A stretch of 64,000 nucleotides of DNA, from positions 2,418,001 to 2,482,000 of the forward strand of contig NZ_CP064786.1 in NCBI RefSeq assembly GCF_017094485.1, written 5' to 3'. The DNA is from Natranaeroarchaeum sulfidigenes (GTDB taxonomy: Archaea; Halobacteriota; Halobacteria; Halobacteriales; Natronoarchaeaceae). The notes beneath the pieces are model-generated. The model worked only from the letters and a program-made list of their open reading frames with translations, was not told the DNA's origin and did no database searches. A program made the position numbers and the translations under genes. Positions 22,619 to 28,147 of the stretch are shown here, piece after piece (position 1 is the stretch's first letter; each line of letters opens with the position of its first letter).

Positions 22619-24670
22619 GTGTCACGGCAGGTCCCGCAGGTCGACACGCTGTTCCTCCACGAGTCGAACGACGACTACTTCGTCACCGTTCGACGCGACG
22701 GCGAGCGACTGTTCCGCGCCCGACTCGACCTCAAGGAGACCTCCGCGGGCCCCCGCCCCGGCCGCTTTCGTATCAAGGACGGCTCCAGCGAGGAGCCACG
22801 CAGCCCGGACGAATTCGTCGATATCGCACGCCGGGCCAACAGGATTCGTATCTCCGAACAGACCGCCCCGGAGCATCGAGACCGCCTCCGAGAGGCGCTC
22901 GACGGCTACCAGCTCTCGGCCAAGGTCGTCCGCACGTGTCGGCTCTGTGCCTCCGATGGTCGGTACTCGCCGCTGAAGAGCGAGACGGCGATCAAAAAGG
23001 ACGATGAATACGTCTGTCCGGCCTGCGCGAAAATCGAGCTCGAACGCGAACTCTCCTATCAGGGCGAGGTCACGAGCGCCGCTCAGGAGCGACTCGAAGA
23101 GCTCCTGCTGGACGTCCAGGATCTCGAACGGATCACGAACCTCCTCAAGGGCCATCTCGATCCGGATCTGACCAAGTTCGACGAGATCAGCGCAACGACC
23201 GACGAGATAGATCGGGTTCGTGTTGACTCGCTGAACCTCCATCCCGGCGTACAGGGGCTTCTGGAGGACCGGTTCGAGACGCTCCTGCCAGTCCAGAGCC
23301 TCGCAATCGAGAACGGCCTGCTGGAAGGCGACGACCAGCTCGTCGTGAGTGCGACGGCAACTGGGAAGACACTCGTCGGCGAGATGACCGGGCTCGACCG
23401 CGTGCTCAACGGCAAGGGCAAGATGCTCTTTCTCGTACCGCTGGTCGCGCTCGCCAATCAGAAACACGAGGATTTCGAGGACGAGTACGGCGACCTCGTC
23501 GACGTGACGATCCGCGTCGGTGCGAGCCGGGTCCGGGATAACGGCAGTCGGTTCGATCCCAGCGCCGACGTCATCGTCGGCACGTACGAGGGGATCGACC
23601 ACGCGCTCCGGACCGGACGAGATCTGGGCGATATCGGTACCGTCGTCATCGACGAGGTGCACACACTCAAAGAGGACGAACGAGGCCACCGCCTGGACGG
23701 GATGATCTCGCGGCTCAAGTACTACTGTGAGCAGCGTTCGAAGTCCCGTTCGGGGTACAGCGGCGCTCAGTGGATCTACCTCTCGGCGACCGTCGGAAAC
23801 CCCCGCGAACTCGCACAGGGACTGCGTGCGAACCTCGTCGAGTTCGAGGAGCGACCCGTTCCGATCGAACGCCACGTCACCTTCGCCGACCAGCGCGAAA
23901 AGACCAGACTGGAGAACAAACTGGTCAAACGCGAGTTCGACTCGAAATCCTCGAAGGGGTATCGCGGGCAGACGATCATTTTCACCAACTCGCGGCGACG
24001 CTGTCACGAGATCAGCCGCAAACTGGAGTACGAGTCGGCGGCCTACCACGCCGGGCTCGATTACGGACAGCGCAAATCCGTCGAGCGGAAGTTCGGGAAT
24101 CAGGATCTCGCTGCAGTAGTGACGACGGCAGCACTGGCAGCCGGTGTGGACTTCCCCGCCTCACAGGTGATTTTCGACACGCTCGCGATGGGGATCGAGT
24201 GGCTCTCGGTACAGGAGTTCCACCAGATGCTCGGCCGGGCTGGACGGCCCGACTACCACGACAAAGGCACTGTCTACGTGCTGGTCGAGCCCGACACGTC
24301 CTATCACTCCAGCATGGAGATGAGCGAGGACGAGGTCGCATTCAAGCTCCTGAAAGGCGAGATGGAATCGGTGCAGACGGTCTACGACGAACGCGCCGCC
24401 GTCGAGGAGACCCTGGCGAACATCACCGTCGCGGGCAAAGCCACCAAACGACTCAATGCCCGGATGCTCGGTGACGTGCCGACCAAACACGCGGTCGGTA
24501 AGCTACTCCAGTACGAGTTTATCGACGGCTTCGAGCCGACGGCGCTGGGCAGGGCAGTGACGACGCACTTCCTGTCGCCGAACGATGCCTTCGTCATGCT
24601 CGATGCGATCCGCAAGGGCAAGGATCCCTACGATATCGTGGCCGAGATCGAGCTGCAGGACCAGTTCTAG
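22619..24670 (+). CDS. SF2 DEAD/DEAH-box helicase with N-terminal zinc finger (DUF5814-type)
   Basis: A 683-aa helicase. An N-terminal ~180-residue module contains C-R-L-C ... C-P-A-C, a zinc finger. The helicase core then shows motif I A-T-A-T-G-K-T, motif II V-I-D-E-V-H, motif III L-S-A-T-V, motif V A-A-G-V-D-F-P-A and motif VI Q-M-L-G-R-A-G-R. The core resembles Hel308/Ski2-like helicases but lacks their long C-terminal domains, ending after a short helical part. From memory haloarchaeal relatives are tagged DUF5814. It uses a GTG start. A role in DNA or RNA processing is likely but unproven. Confidence 0.85.
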   Translation: MSRQVPQVDTLFLHESNDDYFVTVRRDGERLFRARLDLKETSAGPRPGRFRIKDGSSEEPRSPDEFVDIARRANRIRISEQTAPEHRDRLREALDGYQLSAKVVRTCRLCASDGRYSPLKSETAIKKDDEYVCPACAKIELERELSYQGEVTSAAQERLEELLLDVQDLERITNLLKGHLDPDLTKFDEISATTDEIDRVRVDSLNLHPGVQGLLEDRFETLLPVQSLAIENGLLEGDDQLVVSATATGKTLVGEMTGLDRVLNGKGKMLFLVPLVALANQKHEDFEDEYGDLVDVTIRVGASRVRDNGSRFDPSADVIVGTYEGIDHALRTGRDLGDIGTVVIDEVHTLKEDERGHRLDGMISRLKYYCEQRSKSRSGYSGAQWIYLSATVGNPRELAQGLRANLVEFEERPVPIERHVTFADQREKTRLENKLVKREFDSKSSKGYRGQTIIFTNSRRRCHEISRKLEYESAAYHAGLDYGQRKSVERKFGNQDLAAVVTTAALAAGVDFPASQVIFDTLAMGIEWLSVQEFHQMLGRAGRPDYHDKGTVYVLVEPDTSYHSSMEMSEDEVAFKLLKGEMESVQTVYDERAAVEETLANITVAGKATKRLNARMLGDVPTKHAVGKLLQYEFIDGFEPTALGRAVTTHFLSPNDAFVMLDAIRKGKDPYDIVAEIELQDQF

Positions 24671-24740
24671 ACCACCCTGTTTGACCGCAGTCACACCCCG
24701 ACCCCGAAGATTATTCTACGTCTGGGTCGAATTCAATACT

Positions 24741-25811
24741 GTGACAGACCCAGTAGGGGACGGAGATACCGACGAGTTCATCGTCGATTCCTCGATCATC
24801 GATGACGACACCGAATTCTACCGAACCCTGCTTGCGAACACGTCAGAAGGTATCCTCACGATCGACGAGGACAGCAACATCGTGTTCGCAAACCCGGCTA
24901 TCGAAGGGATTCTTGGCTATGCCCCTGACGAACTGGTTGGAAGCTCGAAGATGACGATTATTCCTGAACGTCATCGTGAGGACCATCGAGCTGGGTTAGA
25001 AGCGTATCTACGAACCGGCGAGCGACATATCGACTGGGATGGCGTCGAACTACCGGCACAGCACAGGGCTGGTCACGAGCTCGTCGTTTCGGTCAGTCTC
25101 CGCGAGCACGAATACAACGGAGAGCGGTTTTTCACCGGTATTTTCACCGACGTAACGGAACGCAAGGAGCGAGAACGACGGCTACAGGAAAAGAACGAAC
25201 GCCTCGAAAGCTTCGCATCGGTCGTCTCACACGACCTGCGTAACCCGCTTGGGGTCGCAAGCGCCTATGTAGAGCTCGCTCAGGAGACCGATACCGAGGC
25301 AGTCGACGAGCTCGTGGAGGTCGAACGCTCCCTCGATCGGATGGAACGGATCATCGACGACCTGCTGTGGCTCGCCCGCACCGGGAATCAGGTCGGAAAG
25401 CAAGAGTTACTCGATTTCGCGGGAGTCGCCGAAGATGCCTGGGAGACGACGGAGACTGCCGACGCAACGCTCGTGGTCGACTCCACCGGCAGGATCCGTG
25501 CGGACTACGACCGGCTGGTGCAGTTACTCGAAAACCTGTTCCGGAATGCGATCCAGCACGGCGGCGAGGACGTCACTGTCCGGGTCGGACGGATCGAGGG
25601 GGGATGGTACGTCGAGGACTCTGGTCCCGGCATCGATGCTGACCTCACTGACGAGATTTTCAGTCCCGGAATGTCGACGGAAGAACTCGGGACCGGCCTC
25701 GGCCTCTACATCGTCAAGAGCGTCGCCGAGGGCCACGGCTGGGAGATATCCGTCGGTACGGGCACCGATGGCGGCGCACGATTCGAGTTCACCGGGATCG
25801 ACGAGGAGTGA
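24741..25811 (+). CDS. PAS-domain sensor histidine kinase
   Basis: A 356-aa soluble histidine kinase. One PAS domain covers about 25-140 (I-V-F-A-N-P-A-I-E-G-I-L-G-Y, ending F-T-D-V-T-E-R-K). The dimerisation H-box S-H-D-L-R-N-P-L has phospho-acceptor His164. The ATPase part shows the N box (N-L-F-R-N-A-I-Q-H-G), G1 (D-S-G-P-G-I) and G2 (G-T-G-L-G-L). No transmembrane segment is present. The start is a GTG at 24741, about 30 nt after TTATTC. The IS1341-type element ends within a few bases of the stop codon, so the extreme C-terminus may have been altered by insertion. Confidence 0.85.
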   Translation: MTDPVGDGDTDEFIVDSSIIDDDTEFYRTLLANTSEGILTIDEDSNIVFANPAIEGILGYAPDELVGSSKMTIIPERHREDHRAGLEAYLRTGERHIDWDGVELPAQHRAGHELVVSVSLREHEYNGERFFTGIFTDVTERKERERRLQEKNERLESFASVVSHDLRNPLGVASAYVELAQETDTEAVDELVEVERSLDRMERIIDDLLWLARTGNQVGKQELLDFAGVAEDAWETTETADATLVVDSTGRIRADYDRLVQLLENLFRNAIQHGGEDVTVRVGRIEGGWYVEDSGPGIDADLTDEIFSPGMSTEELGTGLGLYIVKSVAEGHGWEISVGTGTDGGARFEFTGIDEE

Positions 25812-25960
25812 CTTCCTCCCCACCCTACTCGCTCACCGCTAATGCGGTTCGCTCCTTGAGGGTGGGGCTTCCTGCTTCCACGACGCGCTTTGCAGACACC
25901 GAATCGATGTCCGTAGGGAGCGCAGTCTCCACAGGCGTTGATTCGGGACAGCCCGTCCCT
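25812..25960 (-). ncRNA. Probable omega-RNA / sense-overlapping transcript of tnpB
   Basis: The 3' end of tnpB and the right end of the element hold a strong structure: GGGTGGGG pairs with CCCCACCC (25860-25867 and 25818-25825), with an inner ACCGC-TAAT-GCGGT hairpin (25835-25848). TnpB proteins use an RNA from exactly this place, and Halobacterium sotRNAs were described from IS1341 3' ends. The start coordinate is approximate. The guide would be the sequence just beyond the element, i.e. the last codons of the histidine kinase gene read on the minus strand. Confidence 0.55.
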
Positions 25961-27054
25961 ACTTGTTCGAGACCGCGAGAAAGGATATTCCACGACGCAT
26001 TCGCGTCTCTGTCTGCCTCGAACCCACACGACGGACACGAATGCTCGCGTACCCACAACGGCTTGTCCGTCTCGACGCCACATGACGCGCACTCTTTGGT
26101 CGTGCCTCGGGGGTCCACGGCGACGAAGTACGTTCCTTCCCGCTCGCACTTGTATTTGAGCAGTCGCAGGAACGTCCCCCATGAGGCCCCGGCGCGGTTC
26201 CGAGAGTTGCCCGGAAGTTCGACCAGCCCCTTCGCGTCCAAGTCCTCGACGGCCACAAGGTCATACTCGCGGGCGTAGTACGCCGAGAGTTTGTGCAAGA
26301 AGTCTCGACGCTTGCGCTTCAGGTCAGCATGGCGTCGAGCGACCGTCTTGCGCTGTTCCTCCCAATTATTCGAGCCGTGTTCCTTCCGCGAGAGGTTACG
26401 TTGAGCGCGTTCTAACCGCTCGCGTTCATCGGAAAGGTCAGGCGACTCGACGGCAATCCCGTCGCTGTCGTGGACGTATTTTAGGATACCCACGTCGATA
26501 CCAACAGCGTCAGTCACCTCGTCGGGCTTCTTGGGCGGGTTGTCGGGAGTTTCGACGCCAAGGATGGCGTACCACTTGCCGGTGGGGTCGCGTTTGACTG
26601 TGACGGTCTTAATGGTGGCGTCGTCGGGCAGGTCGCGGTGGAAATTGATGGGAATGTCACCAATCTTCGAGAGCCACAGTCGGGTCCGACCACTCGTGTT
26701 TTTGAGTTTGAAGCCGGACTGACTGTAGGTGAACGATTGGTACTCGCCCGGTGCTTTCCACTTCAACTCCCCGACGCTGTAACCGTTCTGCTTCCGGCCG
26801 TTGAGCGTCGAGAGGTTGTCGTACAATCGCTGGACGACTTTCTGCAATACCTTCGAGTGAACGTCTGGCAGGTCAGTCCACCAGTCTTTCAGGTCCGGCA
26901 GACGCTTCTGCTCGGAGTACGACGACGTATCGTCGTGGCGGTTGAGACGGTGGAGAAAATGGTTGTAGACCTGCCTACAGGTATCGACAGTCCACGCTAA
27001 TCGCTCGCGGAGGTCGTCGGACGGGTTTAGTCGATACCTGTAGTTGTAGTTCAT
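25825..27054 (-). CDS. tnpB: TnpB RNA-guided nuclease (IS1341-type OrfB)
   Basis: A 409-aa protein with an N-terminal helix-turn-helix/wedge part and a RuvC-like nuclease. The catalytic acidic triad looks intact: Asp187 (G-I-D-V-G), Glu270 (V-A-V-E-D-L) and Asp350 (A-D-R-D-A-N-A). The zinc ribbon is Cys322/Cys325/Cys340/Cys343 (C-A-S-C ... C-P-S-C). The normal length and full motifs suggest an active enzyme, not a relic. The last codons (A-L-A-V-S-E-stop) are part of the terminal hairpin. TnpB proteins are ancestors of Cas12 and cut DNA guided by omega-RNA. Confidence 0.93.
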   Translation of the reverse strand: MNYNYRYRLNPSDDLRERLAWTVDTCRQVYNHFLHRLNRHDDTSSYSEQKRLPDLKDWWTDLPDVHSKVLQKVVQRLYDNLSTLNGRKQNGYSVGELKWKAPGEYQSFTYSQSGFKLKNTSGRTRLWLSKIGDIPINFHRDLPDDATIKTVTVKRDPTGKWYAILGVETPDNPPKKPDEVTDAVGIDVGILKYVHDSDGIAVESPDLSDERERLERAQRNLSRKEHGSNNWEEQRKTVARRHADLKRKRRDFLHKLSAYYAREYDLVAVEDLDAKGLVELPGNSRNRAGASWGTFLRLLKYKCEREGTYFVAVDPRGTTKECASCGVETDKPLWVREHSCPSCGFEADRDANASWNILSRGLEQVGTGCPESTPVETALPTDIDSVSAKRVVEAGSPTLKERTALAVSE

Positions 27055-27198
27055 CTATTCGTCGTCGGGGTCAGAAGTACGGATGACTTTCACGTCCGCG
27101 CCACGCCAGCGTTTCGGGACGTAGACGTGAGCGCCGTTGCCAGTGGCTTTCACGTCGCCGTCCACGACTTCGTGGCCGTTGATTGTGAACTGTTCCAT
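27055..27198 (-). CDS. DUF2080-type transposase-associated small protein, 47 aa
   Basis: The minus-strand frame reads M-E-Q-F-T-I-N-G-H-E-V-V-D-G-D-V ... G-A-H-V-Y-V-P-K-R-W-R-G and ends D-P-D-D-E. The G-N-G-A-H-V-Y-V-P-K-x-W core is the signature of the DUF2080 transposase-associated family, an AbrB-like small protein. Its stop codon directly abuts the tnpB ATG, so the two are one operon. A TTTATC promoter lies 28-33 nt upstream. It may regulate tnpB expression, but its role is not established. Confidence 0.85.
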   Translation of the reverse strand: MEQFTINGHEVVDGDVKATGNGAHVYVPKRWRGADVKVIRTSDPDDE

Positions 27199-27225
27199 GT
27201 ACGATGTAGATACATTGTCGGGACT

Positions 27226-27231
27226 GATAAA
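27226..27231 (-). promoter_or_regulatory. TATA box of the DUF2080-tnpB operon
   Basis: TTTATC on the minus strand, 28-33 nt before the DUF2080 ATG, predicts a leaderless transcript. The element therefore has its own promoter. Confidence 0.55.
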
Positions 27232-27290
27232 CGTGTCGGTGGGCCTGTGGGCCGGTCGTTGCAGGGTGTATGTGAGACGATGACGGCGCT

Positions 27291-27360
27291 GTATCCCCGC
27301 CCTACTGCGCTACCCGGTCGCTTCGCTCCCTGCGTTGCTCCTTGAGGACGGGGCCTTAGC
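27291..27360 (-). repeat. Solo copy of the IS1341 right-end hairpin
   Basis: CCCCGCCC (27295-27302) pairs with GGACGGGG (27346-27353) apart from one G-T wobble. The minus strand shares CCTCAAGGAGC and TAGGG(C/T)GGGG with the tnpB right end at 25815-25872, in the same orientation. No tnpB lies upstream of it, so it is a solo right end: a remnant of another insertion or a MITE-like unit. Confidence 0.6.
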
Positions 27361-27418
27361 GCCTGATTTTAGGTAAAGCGACCGGGAGTTTCTTGATGCT
27401 CTCACACCACGTCCGGAT

Positions 27419-28147
27419 ATGACCGAGTTTGATGCATGTTACTTCTGCGGTGTCGCCGTCGACGCTCCGGTTGCCGAATACGACGTGGTCCCGGCCGCGG
27501 TGGGCAACAAGCATGGACCGATCGCGTCCTTGTGTCCGTCCTGCAAGGGGAAGCTCGAAAAGGTGCTCGAGCCGACCGTCCGACGGCTTGATACGACCGA
27601 GGAAAACGCGGCGGTGACGCTCGAACCGATCACTGAAGAGGACGACGCACAGGCGGAATCGGGAGCCGACAGTCGGAGCGCCACTCCGACCCGGACAACC
27701 GAGAGTACGCCGGACGAGCGGCCCGAAAAAACGGGTGGTGATCCAGCCCCCGGAAGGGACGCGTTCGACGATGGGATCAAAGTAGAGCCAGCCGACGGGG
27801 CGCACGACGACGAACAGGCCGAGAACTCGGACGAACAATCAGGAAAGCAGTCCGCCTCCACCAATTCGACCGCGTCCGCAGATGCTGAAGTGAACACGCG
27901 CGAGACACGTGACACTGACGATGCCGATCCCGACGCTCCGGAACGGCCAGAGACGGAGACGTACAACCGGGTGGTCCGCCTGCTCCAGAATCGTGAGTTC
28001 CCGGTCGACCGCTCGGAGTTCGAGACGCTTGCGAGTTCGGCGTACGACGTCTCACCCGCGGAGTGCGAACGCGTGATCGAGTATGCGATCTATCGCGACG
28101 AACTCGATGAACACGATGGGCTACTGCAAAAACCGAACTCAGAGTAA
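27419..28147 (+). CDS. Zinc-ribbon protein with acidic linker and C-terminal helical domain
   Basis: A 242-aa haloarchaeal protein of unknown function. The N-terminal ~45 residues carry C-Y-F-C ... C-P-S-C, a zinc ribbon. A long disordered D/E/S/T/P-rich linker spans roughly 65-180. The C-terminal ~60 residues (Y-N-R-V-V-R-L-L-Q-N-R-E-F-P-V-D-R-S-E-F) are a small helical, possibly DNA-binding domain. The IS1341 element and the solo hairpin lie immediately upstream, so its native promoter may have been displaced. Confidence 0.75.
   Translation: MTEFDACYFCGVAVDAPVAEYDVVPAAVGNKHGPIASLCPSCKGKLEKVLEPTVRRLDTTEENAAVTLEPITEEDDAQAESGADSRSATPTRTTESTPDERPEKTGGDPAPGRDAFDDGIKVEPADGAHDDEQAENSDEQSGKQSASTNSTASADAEVNTRETRDTDDADPDAPERPETETYNRVVRLLQNREFPVDRSEFETLASSAYDVSPAECERVIEYAIYRDELDEHDGLLQKPNSE

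What the first reader, a model, noticed from the sequence alone, without database searches (positions are those of the whole stretch)
25812..27198. Complete tnpB-only IS1341 element with intact RuvC triad and omega-RNA-like end
TnpB has Asp187, Glu270 and Asp350 and a full zinc ribbon, and its 3' end folds into an 8-bp plus 5-bp hairpin that includes the stop codon. No tnpA is present. The element may therefore be an active RNA-guided nuclease locus. The predicted guide would be the histidine kinase gene end adjacent to the right end.
Basis: partly seen in the sequence, partly recalled or inferred. Interest (0 to 1): 0.6.

Follow-up and report, generated by a model that had tools for sequence, protein, structure and literature searches.

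The report
DUF2080-regulated TnpB element in haloarchaeon
This is a complete, well-preserved mobile DNA element of salt-loving archaea that encodes an RNA-guided DNA cutter, its overlapping guide RNA and, unlike what was first reported, a small partner gene that probably keeps the cutter in check.

Summary
TnpB at 25825-27054 (minus) has an intact RuvC triad and zinc ribbon, and the reported 3' hairpin exists. The element is not tnpB-only: a DUF2080 gene (27055-27198) abuts tnpB. True ends are 25808-27372 (1,565 bp). The 3' end is an overlapping omega-RNA by codon constraint and compensatory pairs, but matches no Rfam family. The core is an IS200/IS605 (IS1341-type) element, a known kind.

Two features are not described in the papers I could search. 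(1) The slot upstream of tnpB, where tnpA can sit, holds interchangeable antitoxin-type small genes (DUF2080, ribbon-helix-helix-like, once AbrB/MazE), swapped repeatedly between related tnpBs. (2) Just inside tnpB is a conserved stem (here 14 bp), near perfect with DUF2080 in three TnpB lineages and with ribbon-helix-helix in one, weaker or absent in TnpA-linked or accessory-less relatives. I infer two-layer control of TnpB: autorepression plus a translational hairpin. Nuclease activity and the regulatory roles are untested.

The parts
25808..27372 (-). whole element, 1,565 bp, left end at 27372, right end at 25808
   Evidence: conserved family ends and the empty site in same-genus genome G001
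27373..27377 (-). TTTAC motif flanking the left end (presumed target-adjacent motif)
   Evidence: TTAC at this place in 44 of 70 anchored left ends, counted by hand from the table, TTAA in 12, TTAG in 10, other in 4; the empty site has TTCAC
27290..27372 (-). left end with subterminal imperfect palindrome resembling the right-end hairpin
   Evidence: repeat D2; same arrangement in relatives; folded as a single DNA strand it is not exceptional, z -0.75
27199..27231 (-). promoter region: TTTATC box and repeat-like sequence before the DUF2080 start
   Evidence: class-specific 11-bp periodicity in the DUF2080 group, 9-bp in the RHH group; suggestive only
27055..27198 (-). DUF2080 family transposase-associated protein, 47 aa (P0002)
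   Evidence: NF033496 E 1.2e-18, 66 bits; Pfam PF09853 only 14.8 bits against a cut-off of 21.5
25825..27054 (-). TnpB RNA-guided nuclease, 409 aa (P0001); start codon directly abuts the DUF2080 stop codon
26975..27043 (-). 5' coding stem of tnpB: arms 27030-27043 and 26975-26988, 14 bp perfect, 41-nt loop
   Evidence: I2; z -3.86; 96.2% of cells paired in 56 relatives against at most 58% in 20 other registers; ancestry-keeping synonymous null reached in 0 of 200
25808..25972 (-). omega-RNA scaffold overlapping the tnpB 3' end and stop codon
25788..25807 (-). predicted first 20 nt of the guide (antisense of the histidine kinase 3' end)
   Evidence: directly 3' of the right end; no genomic site within 2 mismatches of motif plus guide other than the element's own end
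24585..25811 (+). histidine kinase-like gene whose stop codon TGA (25809-25811) is now supplied by the element
   Evidence: ortholog 92% identical with an empty site in G001

Best explanation
It is a complete IS200/IS605-family (IS1341-type) element that lost or never had tnpA and carries DUF2080 plus tnpB. TnpB, with the omega-RNA cut from the 3' end of its own transcript and a guide read from the flanking kinase gene, most likely cleaves the empty version of this site in other chromosome copies, so that the element is copied back or kept (anatomy shown, activity inferred). Movement most likely needs a TnpA supplied in trans by IS605 relatives with similar ends (inferred). The DUF2080 protein is most likely a small autoregulator, exchangeable with ribbon-helix-helix or AbrB proteins, that holds down the DUF2080-tnpB transcript. 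The hairpin just inside tnpB adds a second brake, making tnpB translation dependent on the upstream cistron or on the accessory protein (conservation shown, mechanism inferred).
For: Element class: TnpB; ends; empty site. Functional TnpB: dN/dS 0.09-0.15 over codons 31-360 in 7 of 8 relatives listed (the eighth, L034, has a different length and was not computed). Omega-RNA: third-position identity at 4-fold sites 0.80 in codons 361-409 against 0.52 before, 25 and 102 sites, P 6e-7; 14 of 29 predicted pairs with compensatory changes in 59 sequences; dS 0.03-0.06 in codons 361-405 against 0.17-0.42 before. Accessory slot: of 88 loci with visible upstream sequence and not chosen through DUF2080, 34 DUF2080, 37 RHH, 1 AbrB, 1 TnpA, 15 none, no locus with two; at least 6 (DUF2080) and 7 (RHH) label changes forced by strongly supported branches of a 65-TnpB tree. 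Hairpin. Transfer: 92-95% identical TnpB in other genera, no shared insertion site among the loci held.
Against: No expression, binding or cleavage data. The promoter repeats are weak evidence: shared ancestry alone gave equally high z in coding controls, and palindromes were at best marginal (P 0.047 for DUF2080, 0.5 for RHH). DUF2080 gave no confident fold (pLDDT 55 and 62) and no solved relative, so DNA binding is not shown. The RHH match is below the Pfam cut-off (CcdA, E 0.0066). Lineage-1 TnpA-linked elements also keep a weaker stem (10.8 of 14 pairs), and accessory-less sets gave weak stems at other places (P 0.015 and 0.035), so the stem is not exclusive to small accessory genes.
Confidence: 0.68

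Rival explanations
1. The small gene is a transposition or end-binding factor that works with a TnpA in trans, not a regulator.
For: It sits in the slot where IS605 relatives carry tnpA (L009); NCBI calls it transposase-associated.
Against: It is swapped for unrelated small proteins while the element ends stay alike; this genome has no TnpA to work with.
Confidence: 0.2
2. The small gene is a true antitoxin that binds and blocks the TnpB protein, so the pair works like a toxin-antitoxin module.
For: DUF2080 is listed as an antitoxin domain beside nuclease toxins (PMC10440598, one passage); the other occupants of the slot resemble CcdA and MazE.
Against: No interface or toxicity evidence; TnpA-linked and accessory-less elements do without it.
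Confidence: 0.2
3. The element is a domesticated TnpB (TldR-like repressor) that regulates the kinase gene.
For: The guide is antisense to the kinase 3' end.
Against: Catalytic triad intact; the same-genus relative lacks it at this site; relatives sit at unrelated sites.
Confidence: 0.04
4. The 5' stem is a DNA element (paired protein half-sites) rather than an mRNA hairpin.
For: A-C mismatches are not clearly rarer than G-U pairs in the stems, so RNA is not proven.
Against: Arm-to-arm distance differs by 6 nt between lineages 1 and 2, not a helical turn; lineage 1 keeps one stem under two unrelated accessory proteins.
Confidence: 0.25
5. The element is a decaying fossil.
For: No TnpA in the genome.
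Against: Both ends, triad, RNA pairs and low dN/dS are intact.
Confidence: 0.06

Closest known systems
IS200/IS605 family, IS1341-type (tnpB without tnpA) of haloarchaea
   Same: TnpB, subterminal palindromes, no target duplication, short flanking motif; PMC3119063 (passages) already notes many haloarchaeal tnpB without tnpA
   Different: carries a DUF2080 cistron and a 5' coding stem that those passages do not mention
ISDra2 TnpB with omega-RNA (8bf8, 8exa, 8h1j)
   Same: RuvC triad, zinc ribbon, alignment over residues 5-366
   Different: flanking motif TTTAC here, ISDra2 TTGAT (recalled); no tnpA in this element
Halobacterium salinarum sotRNAs / circular omega-RNAs (PMC8303175, PMC12558985; Rfam sot0042, sot2652)
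   Same: omega-RNA from the tnpB 3' end in haloarchaea; right-end hairpin
   Different: no match of the window to either Rfam model up to E 5; probably a distinct omega-RNA family
DUF2080 family transposase-associated protein beside transposase in haloarchaeal plasmid records
   Same: same gene pair already annotated in public records (9 of the 10 best records H1-H10 name DUF2080, one has no annotation)
   Different: no function, fold or regulatory element described in the passage of the one paper found that names DUF2080
Type II antitoxins (CcdA/RHH, MazE/AbrB)
   Same: size, position upstream of a nuclease gene, family resemblance of the RHH and AbrB occupants
   Different: no toxin-antitoxin behaviour shown; DUF2080 itself has no confident fold here

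Membership tests
IS200/IS605 family, IS1341-type element | tnpB present, tnpA absent in cis | tested here: met
IS200/IS605 family, IS1341-type element | subterminal palindromes at both ends, no inverted terminal repeats | tested here: met
   the LE palindrome alone folds no better than shuffles
IS200/IS605 family, IS1341-type element | precise insertion 3' of a short motif without target duplication | tested here: met
   empty site in G001, one base different within the motif
IS200/IS605 family, IS1341-type element | single-strand transposition by Y1 TnpA | not testable with these tools
   no Y1 gene in this genome; movement in trans is inference
TnpB OMEGA nuclease | RuvC D-E-D triad and zinc ribbon | tested here: met
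TnpB OMEGA nuclease | omega-RNA overlapping the tnpB 3' end, guide beyond the right end | tested here: met
   constraint and covariation; transcript not seen
TnpB OMEGA nuclease | RNA-guided DNA cleavage | not testable with these tools
   needs an assay
Rfam sot0042 / sot2652 | match to the covariance model | tested here: not met
   no match at gathering score over the window, none to these families up to E 5 over 25700-27500
DUF2080 family | NCBIfam model above cut-off | tested here: met
   66.3 bits against 22; Pfam model below its cut-off
Type II toxin-antitoxin system | antitoxin neutralises a toxic partner and autoregulates | tested here: inconclusive
   families only resemble antitoxins; operator evidence weak
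TldR nuclease-dead repressors (recalled) | loss of RuvC catalytic residues | tested here: not met
   triad intact

The most novel reading that the evidence does not exclude
Haloarchaeal TnpB elements have replaced tnpA by a plug-in control cassette: an exchangeable antitoxin-type protein acting on its own promoter, and a near-perfect hairpin at the start of the tnpB coding sequence on which that protein or its translating ribosome acts. Together they meter an RNA-guided nuclease much as an antitoxin meters a toxin.
Probability: 0.35. Interest if true: 0.68.

Novelty: new variant of a known kind. Interest (0 to 1): 0.5.

Why it matters
How selfish RNA-guided nucleases are kept from killing their hosts is open. 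If the small gene and the 5' stem meter TnpB, this gives a testable control system for TnpB in archaea with genetics, a function for the unknown family DUF2080, and an explanation for why so many haloarchaeal tnpB genes persist without tnpA.

Tried and rejected
Rfam match of the right end to sot0042/sot2652: none. Sequence link of DUF2080 to solved AbrB/MazE structures: none, best E 0.32 to unrelated proteins. Fold of DUF2080: two predictions too poor to search (pLDDT 55 alone, 62 with 25 sequences), so no fold search was run. Palindromic operators before the accessory gene: at best marginal overall, P 0.047 and 0.5. Direct repeats of 11 bp (DUF2080) and 9 bp (RHH): sharp peaks, kept in diverged representatives (z 3.8 with 9, z 5.9 with 6), but coding controls reached similar z through shared ancestry, so only suggestive. 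Self-targeting: the first 14 nt of the guide recur all over the genome; with the motif, nothing within 2 mismatches except the element's own end. Shared insertion sites among relatives: none; the one flank hit (L011) is a 61-bp stretch. TldR-like domestication and decay: rejected on the triad, dN/dS and site data.

Rows dropped before counts: near-duplicates; one search used 59 of the 73 right ends listed, my selection; L008 is left out of the tree because of an in-frame stop; L094 carries the label 'none' but its ORF start is doubtful, so it was left out. The 15 'none' loci include fragments whose hit lacks the tnpB start. The tnpB start sites in lineage 3 were set by motif and trimmed to a common anchor. 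Of 10 paper searches 9 were used.

Full report
What is there. The window belongs to a 3.04-Mb genome; the named relatives returned by the TnpB search are haloarchaea, apart from a few MAGs named only as archaea. On the minus strand, a 409-aa TnpB ORF (25825-27054) is preceded, stop codon directly against start codon, by a 47-aa ORF (27055-27198). TnpB scores 284 bits against NCBIfam guided_TnpB and hits Cas12f1-like_TNB and OrfB_IS605 of Pfam. Asp187, Glu270 and Asp350 align with the corresponding acidic residues of ISDra2 TnpB; the four ribbon cysteines are 322, 325, 340 and 343. The small ORF is DUF2080_fam_acc (66 bits). The finding's 'tnpB-only' is therefore wrong, and its end coordinate is the start of this second gene.

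The ends. In relatives the left end reads TTAC|CTGAA or CTAAA..AGGCGCTAAG followed by a palindrome like the right-end hairpin, and the right end finishes in GTAGTTCAC or, in the window's own subgroup, GGAAGTCAC. Of 70 left ends that could be anchored, I read TTAC in 44, TTAA in 12, TTAG in 10 and something else in 4 (counted by hand). This puts the element at 25808-27372. A same-genus genome (G001) has the kinase ortholog (92% identity) without the element: its sequence runs from the kinase end straight into the sequence found beyond 27377, with one base different inside the five-base motif. No target duplication is seen. The element sits exactly at the kinase stop codon, and the TGA used now comes from the element.

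Omega-RNA. In 56 TnpB genes (1,212 of 1,540 pairs, those with 60-88% protein identity), identity at third positions of 4-fold codons is 0.52 over codons 1-360 and 0.80 over codons 361-409 (102 and 25 sites, P 6e-7). Against seven close relatives dS falls from 0.17-0.42 to 0.03-0.06 there, while dN/dS of codons 31-360 is 0.09-0.15. RNAalifold on 59 right ends predicts 29 pairs, 14 with compensatory changes, in five helices plus one lone pair; the right-end stem contains the tnpB stop codon. The window's own 178 nt fold at z -3.24. No Rfam omega-RNA family matches. The guide predicted by this anatomy, starting at 25807, is antisense to the kinase end; motif plus guide finds no other site in the genome within 2 mismatches.

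Mobility. The genome has three further close TnpBs (70, 65 and 55%) but no Y1 TnpA. TnpBs 92-95% identical lie in other genera, with no shared insertion site among the loci held, so these elements have spread. The sister genome has a tnpA-tnpB element with like ends (L009), which makes mobilisation in trans plausible. That is inference.

The slot upstream of tnpB. Of 101 loci with this TnpB, 6 had been found through DUF2080 and 7 were cut by contig ends; of the other 88, 34 have DUF2080, 37 a ribbon-helix-helix-like ORF, 1 an AbrB/MazE ORF, 1 TnpA and 15 none of these (the 'none' set includes fragments). The RHH ORF matches CcdA weakly (E 0.0066, below cut-off), the AbrB ORF matches MazE_antitoxin well (E 8.7e-9). 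On a tree of 65 TnpBs the DUF2080 label needs 10 changes, at least 6 forced by strongly supported branches, the RHH label 11 and 7. So unrelated antitoxin-type genes replace one another in one place. DUF2080 also precedes other TnpB lineages: NCBIfam gives guided_TnpB for the ORF downstream in 6 of 8 loci tested (L105, L106 just under the cut-off, L119, L123, L131, L133; none for L107, whose locus is short, or L113). In the order, DUF2080 occurs in 123 of 293 genomes. Public plasmid annotation already shows the pair, so the pairing is not new. DUF2080 appears in one paper of the library, where a DUF2080 domain is listed among antitoxins of nuclease toxins (one passage).

A stem inside tnpB. 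The repeat search found a perfect 14-nt inverted repeat at nt 12-25 and 67-80 of tnpB (I2). Of 65 ORFs, 56 have a longer repeat there than synonymous shuffles allow (P up to 0.05): 28 of 28 with DUF2080, 26 of 28 with RHH, the TnpA and the AbrB one, and 0 of 7 without accessory gene. In the 56 DUF2080 or RHH genes 96.2% of cells pair, against at most 58% in 20 other registers, with G-C to A-U changes in ten genes at one pair. With a null that recodes synonymously but keeps shared ancestry, the best 9-bp stem beats 200 of 200 recodings for the lineage-1 DUF2080, RHH and TnpA sets; P is 0.005 for a second TnpB lineage with DUF2080 (16 genes) and 0.010 for a third (7 genes); for the TnpA-linked members of that third lineage P is 0.34 (19 genes). 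Two accessory-less sets gave weaker stems elsewhere (P 0.015 with 5 genes, 0.035 with 3). Mean pairs formed at each lineage's stem: lineage 1, DUF2080 13.4, RHH 13.5, TnpA 10.8, none 6.8 of 14; lineage 2, DUF2080 10.4 of 11; lineage 3, DUF2080 8.7, TnpA 7.1, other 6.3 of 9. The stem is thus near perfect where a small accessory gene precedes tnpB and weaker where tnpA or nothing does. Relatedness within sets means that these are few independent events.

How it probably works. Shown: a two-cistron element with intact TnpB, constrained omega-RNA, precise site, exchangeable small genes and a conserved stem at the start of tnpB. Inferred: TnpB uses the flank as guide and cuts the empty allele, so that repair restores the element in the many chromosome copies of haloarchaea (polyploidy recalled). 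The small protein lowers expression of its own operon; class-specific 9- and 11-bp repeats lie between a TATA-like box and the start codon, but controls show that shared ancestry can fake such signals, and palindromes are at best marginal. The stem, about 10 nt behind a tnpB start codon that abuts or overlaps the upstream stop codon, would hinder independent initiation on tnpB and tie its translation to the upstream cistron, or be the binding site of the small protein. RNA and DNA readings are not yet separable.

Literature seen. PMC12558985: abstract and two sections. PMC8303175, PMC3119063, PMC12737573, PMC10440598: passages only. Searches for TnpB with haloarchaea, ribbon-helix-helix, antitoxin plus autoregulation, accessory plus regulator, hairpin plus start codon, CopG, and repressor plus operon gave no listing whose title or visible abstract describes such a regulator or stem. 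Gomes-Filho 2015 is not held, so prior mention there is possible.

Verdict. The accessory slot and the 5' stem make it a variant worth an experiment; interest 0.5.

Noticed in passing
L034, L071 (right end), L026, L031, L032, L039, L067, L068, L070, L074, L087 (left end): Short double-hairpin inserts occur inside the left end or omega-RNA region of many relatives, and several TnpB ORFs are about 20 aa longer (426-432 instead of 407-411 aa), consistent with in-frame inserts; compare the small mobile repeats that target IS605 elements in PMC3119063. The window copy has none.
   Followed up: partly
L158, nt 28-62 of tnpB; similar in L153, L160, L164, L168, L171: Some TnpA-linked tnpB genes of the third lineage carry a different compact inverted repeat (up to 15 bp) slightly further inside the ORF.
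   Followed up: no
L011 (G001:C10): A second DUF2080-tnpB element sits about 70 bp behind another histidine kinase-like gene; probably coincidence given the many kinases.
   Followed up: no
L002 and L010: The two species share an RHH-tnpB element at the same site; in G001 the ORF carries an extra palindromic stretch.
   Followed up: no
window 25808-25811: The element supplies the stop codon of the histidine kinase, leaving its protein end unchanged relative to the G001 ortholog (both end GIDEE).
   Followed up: yes
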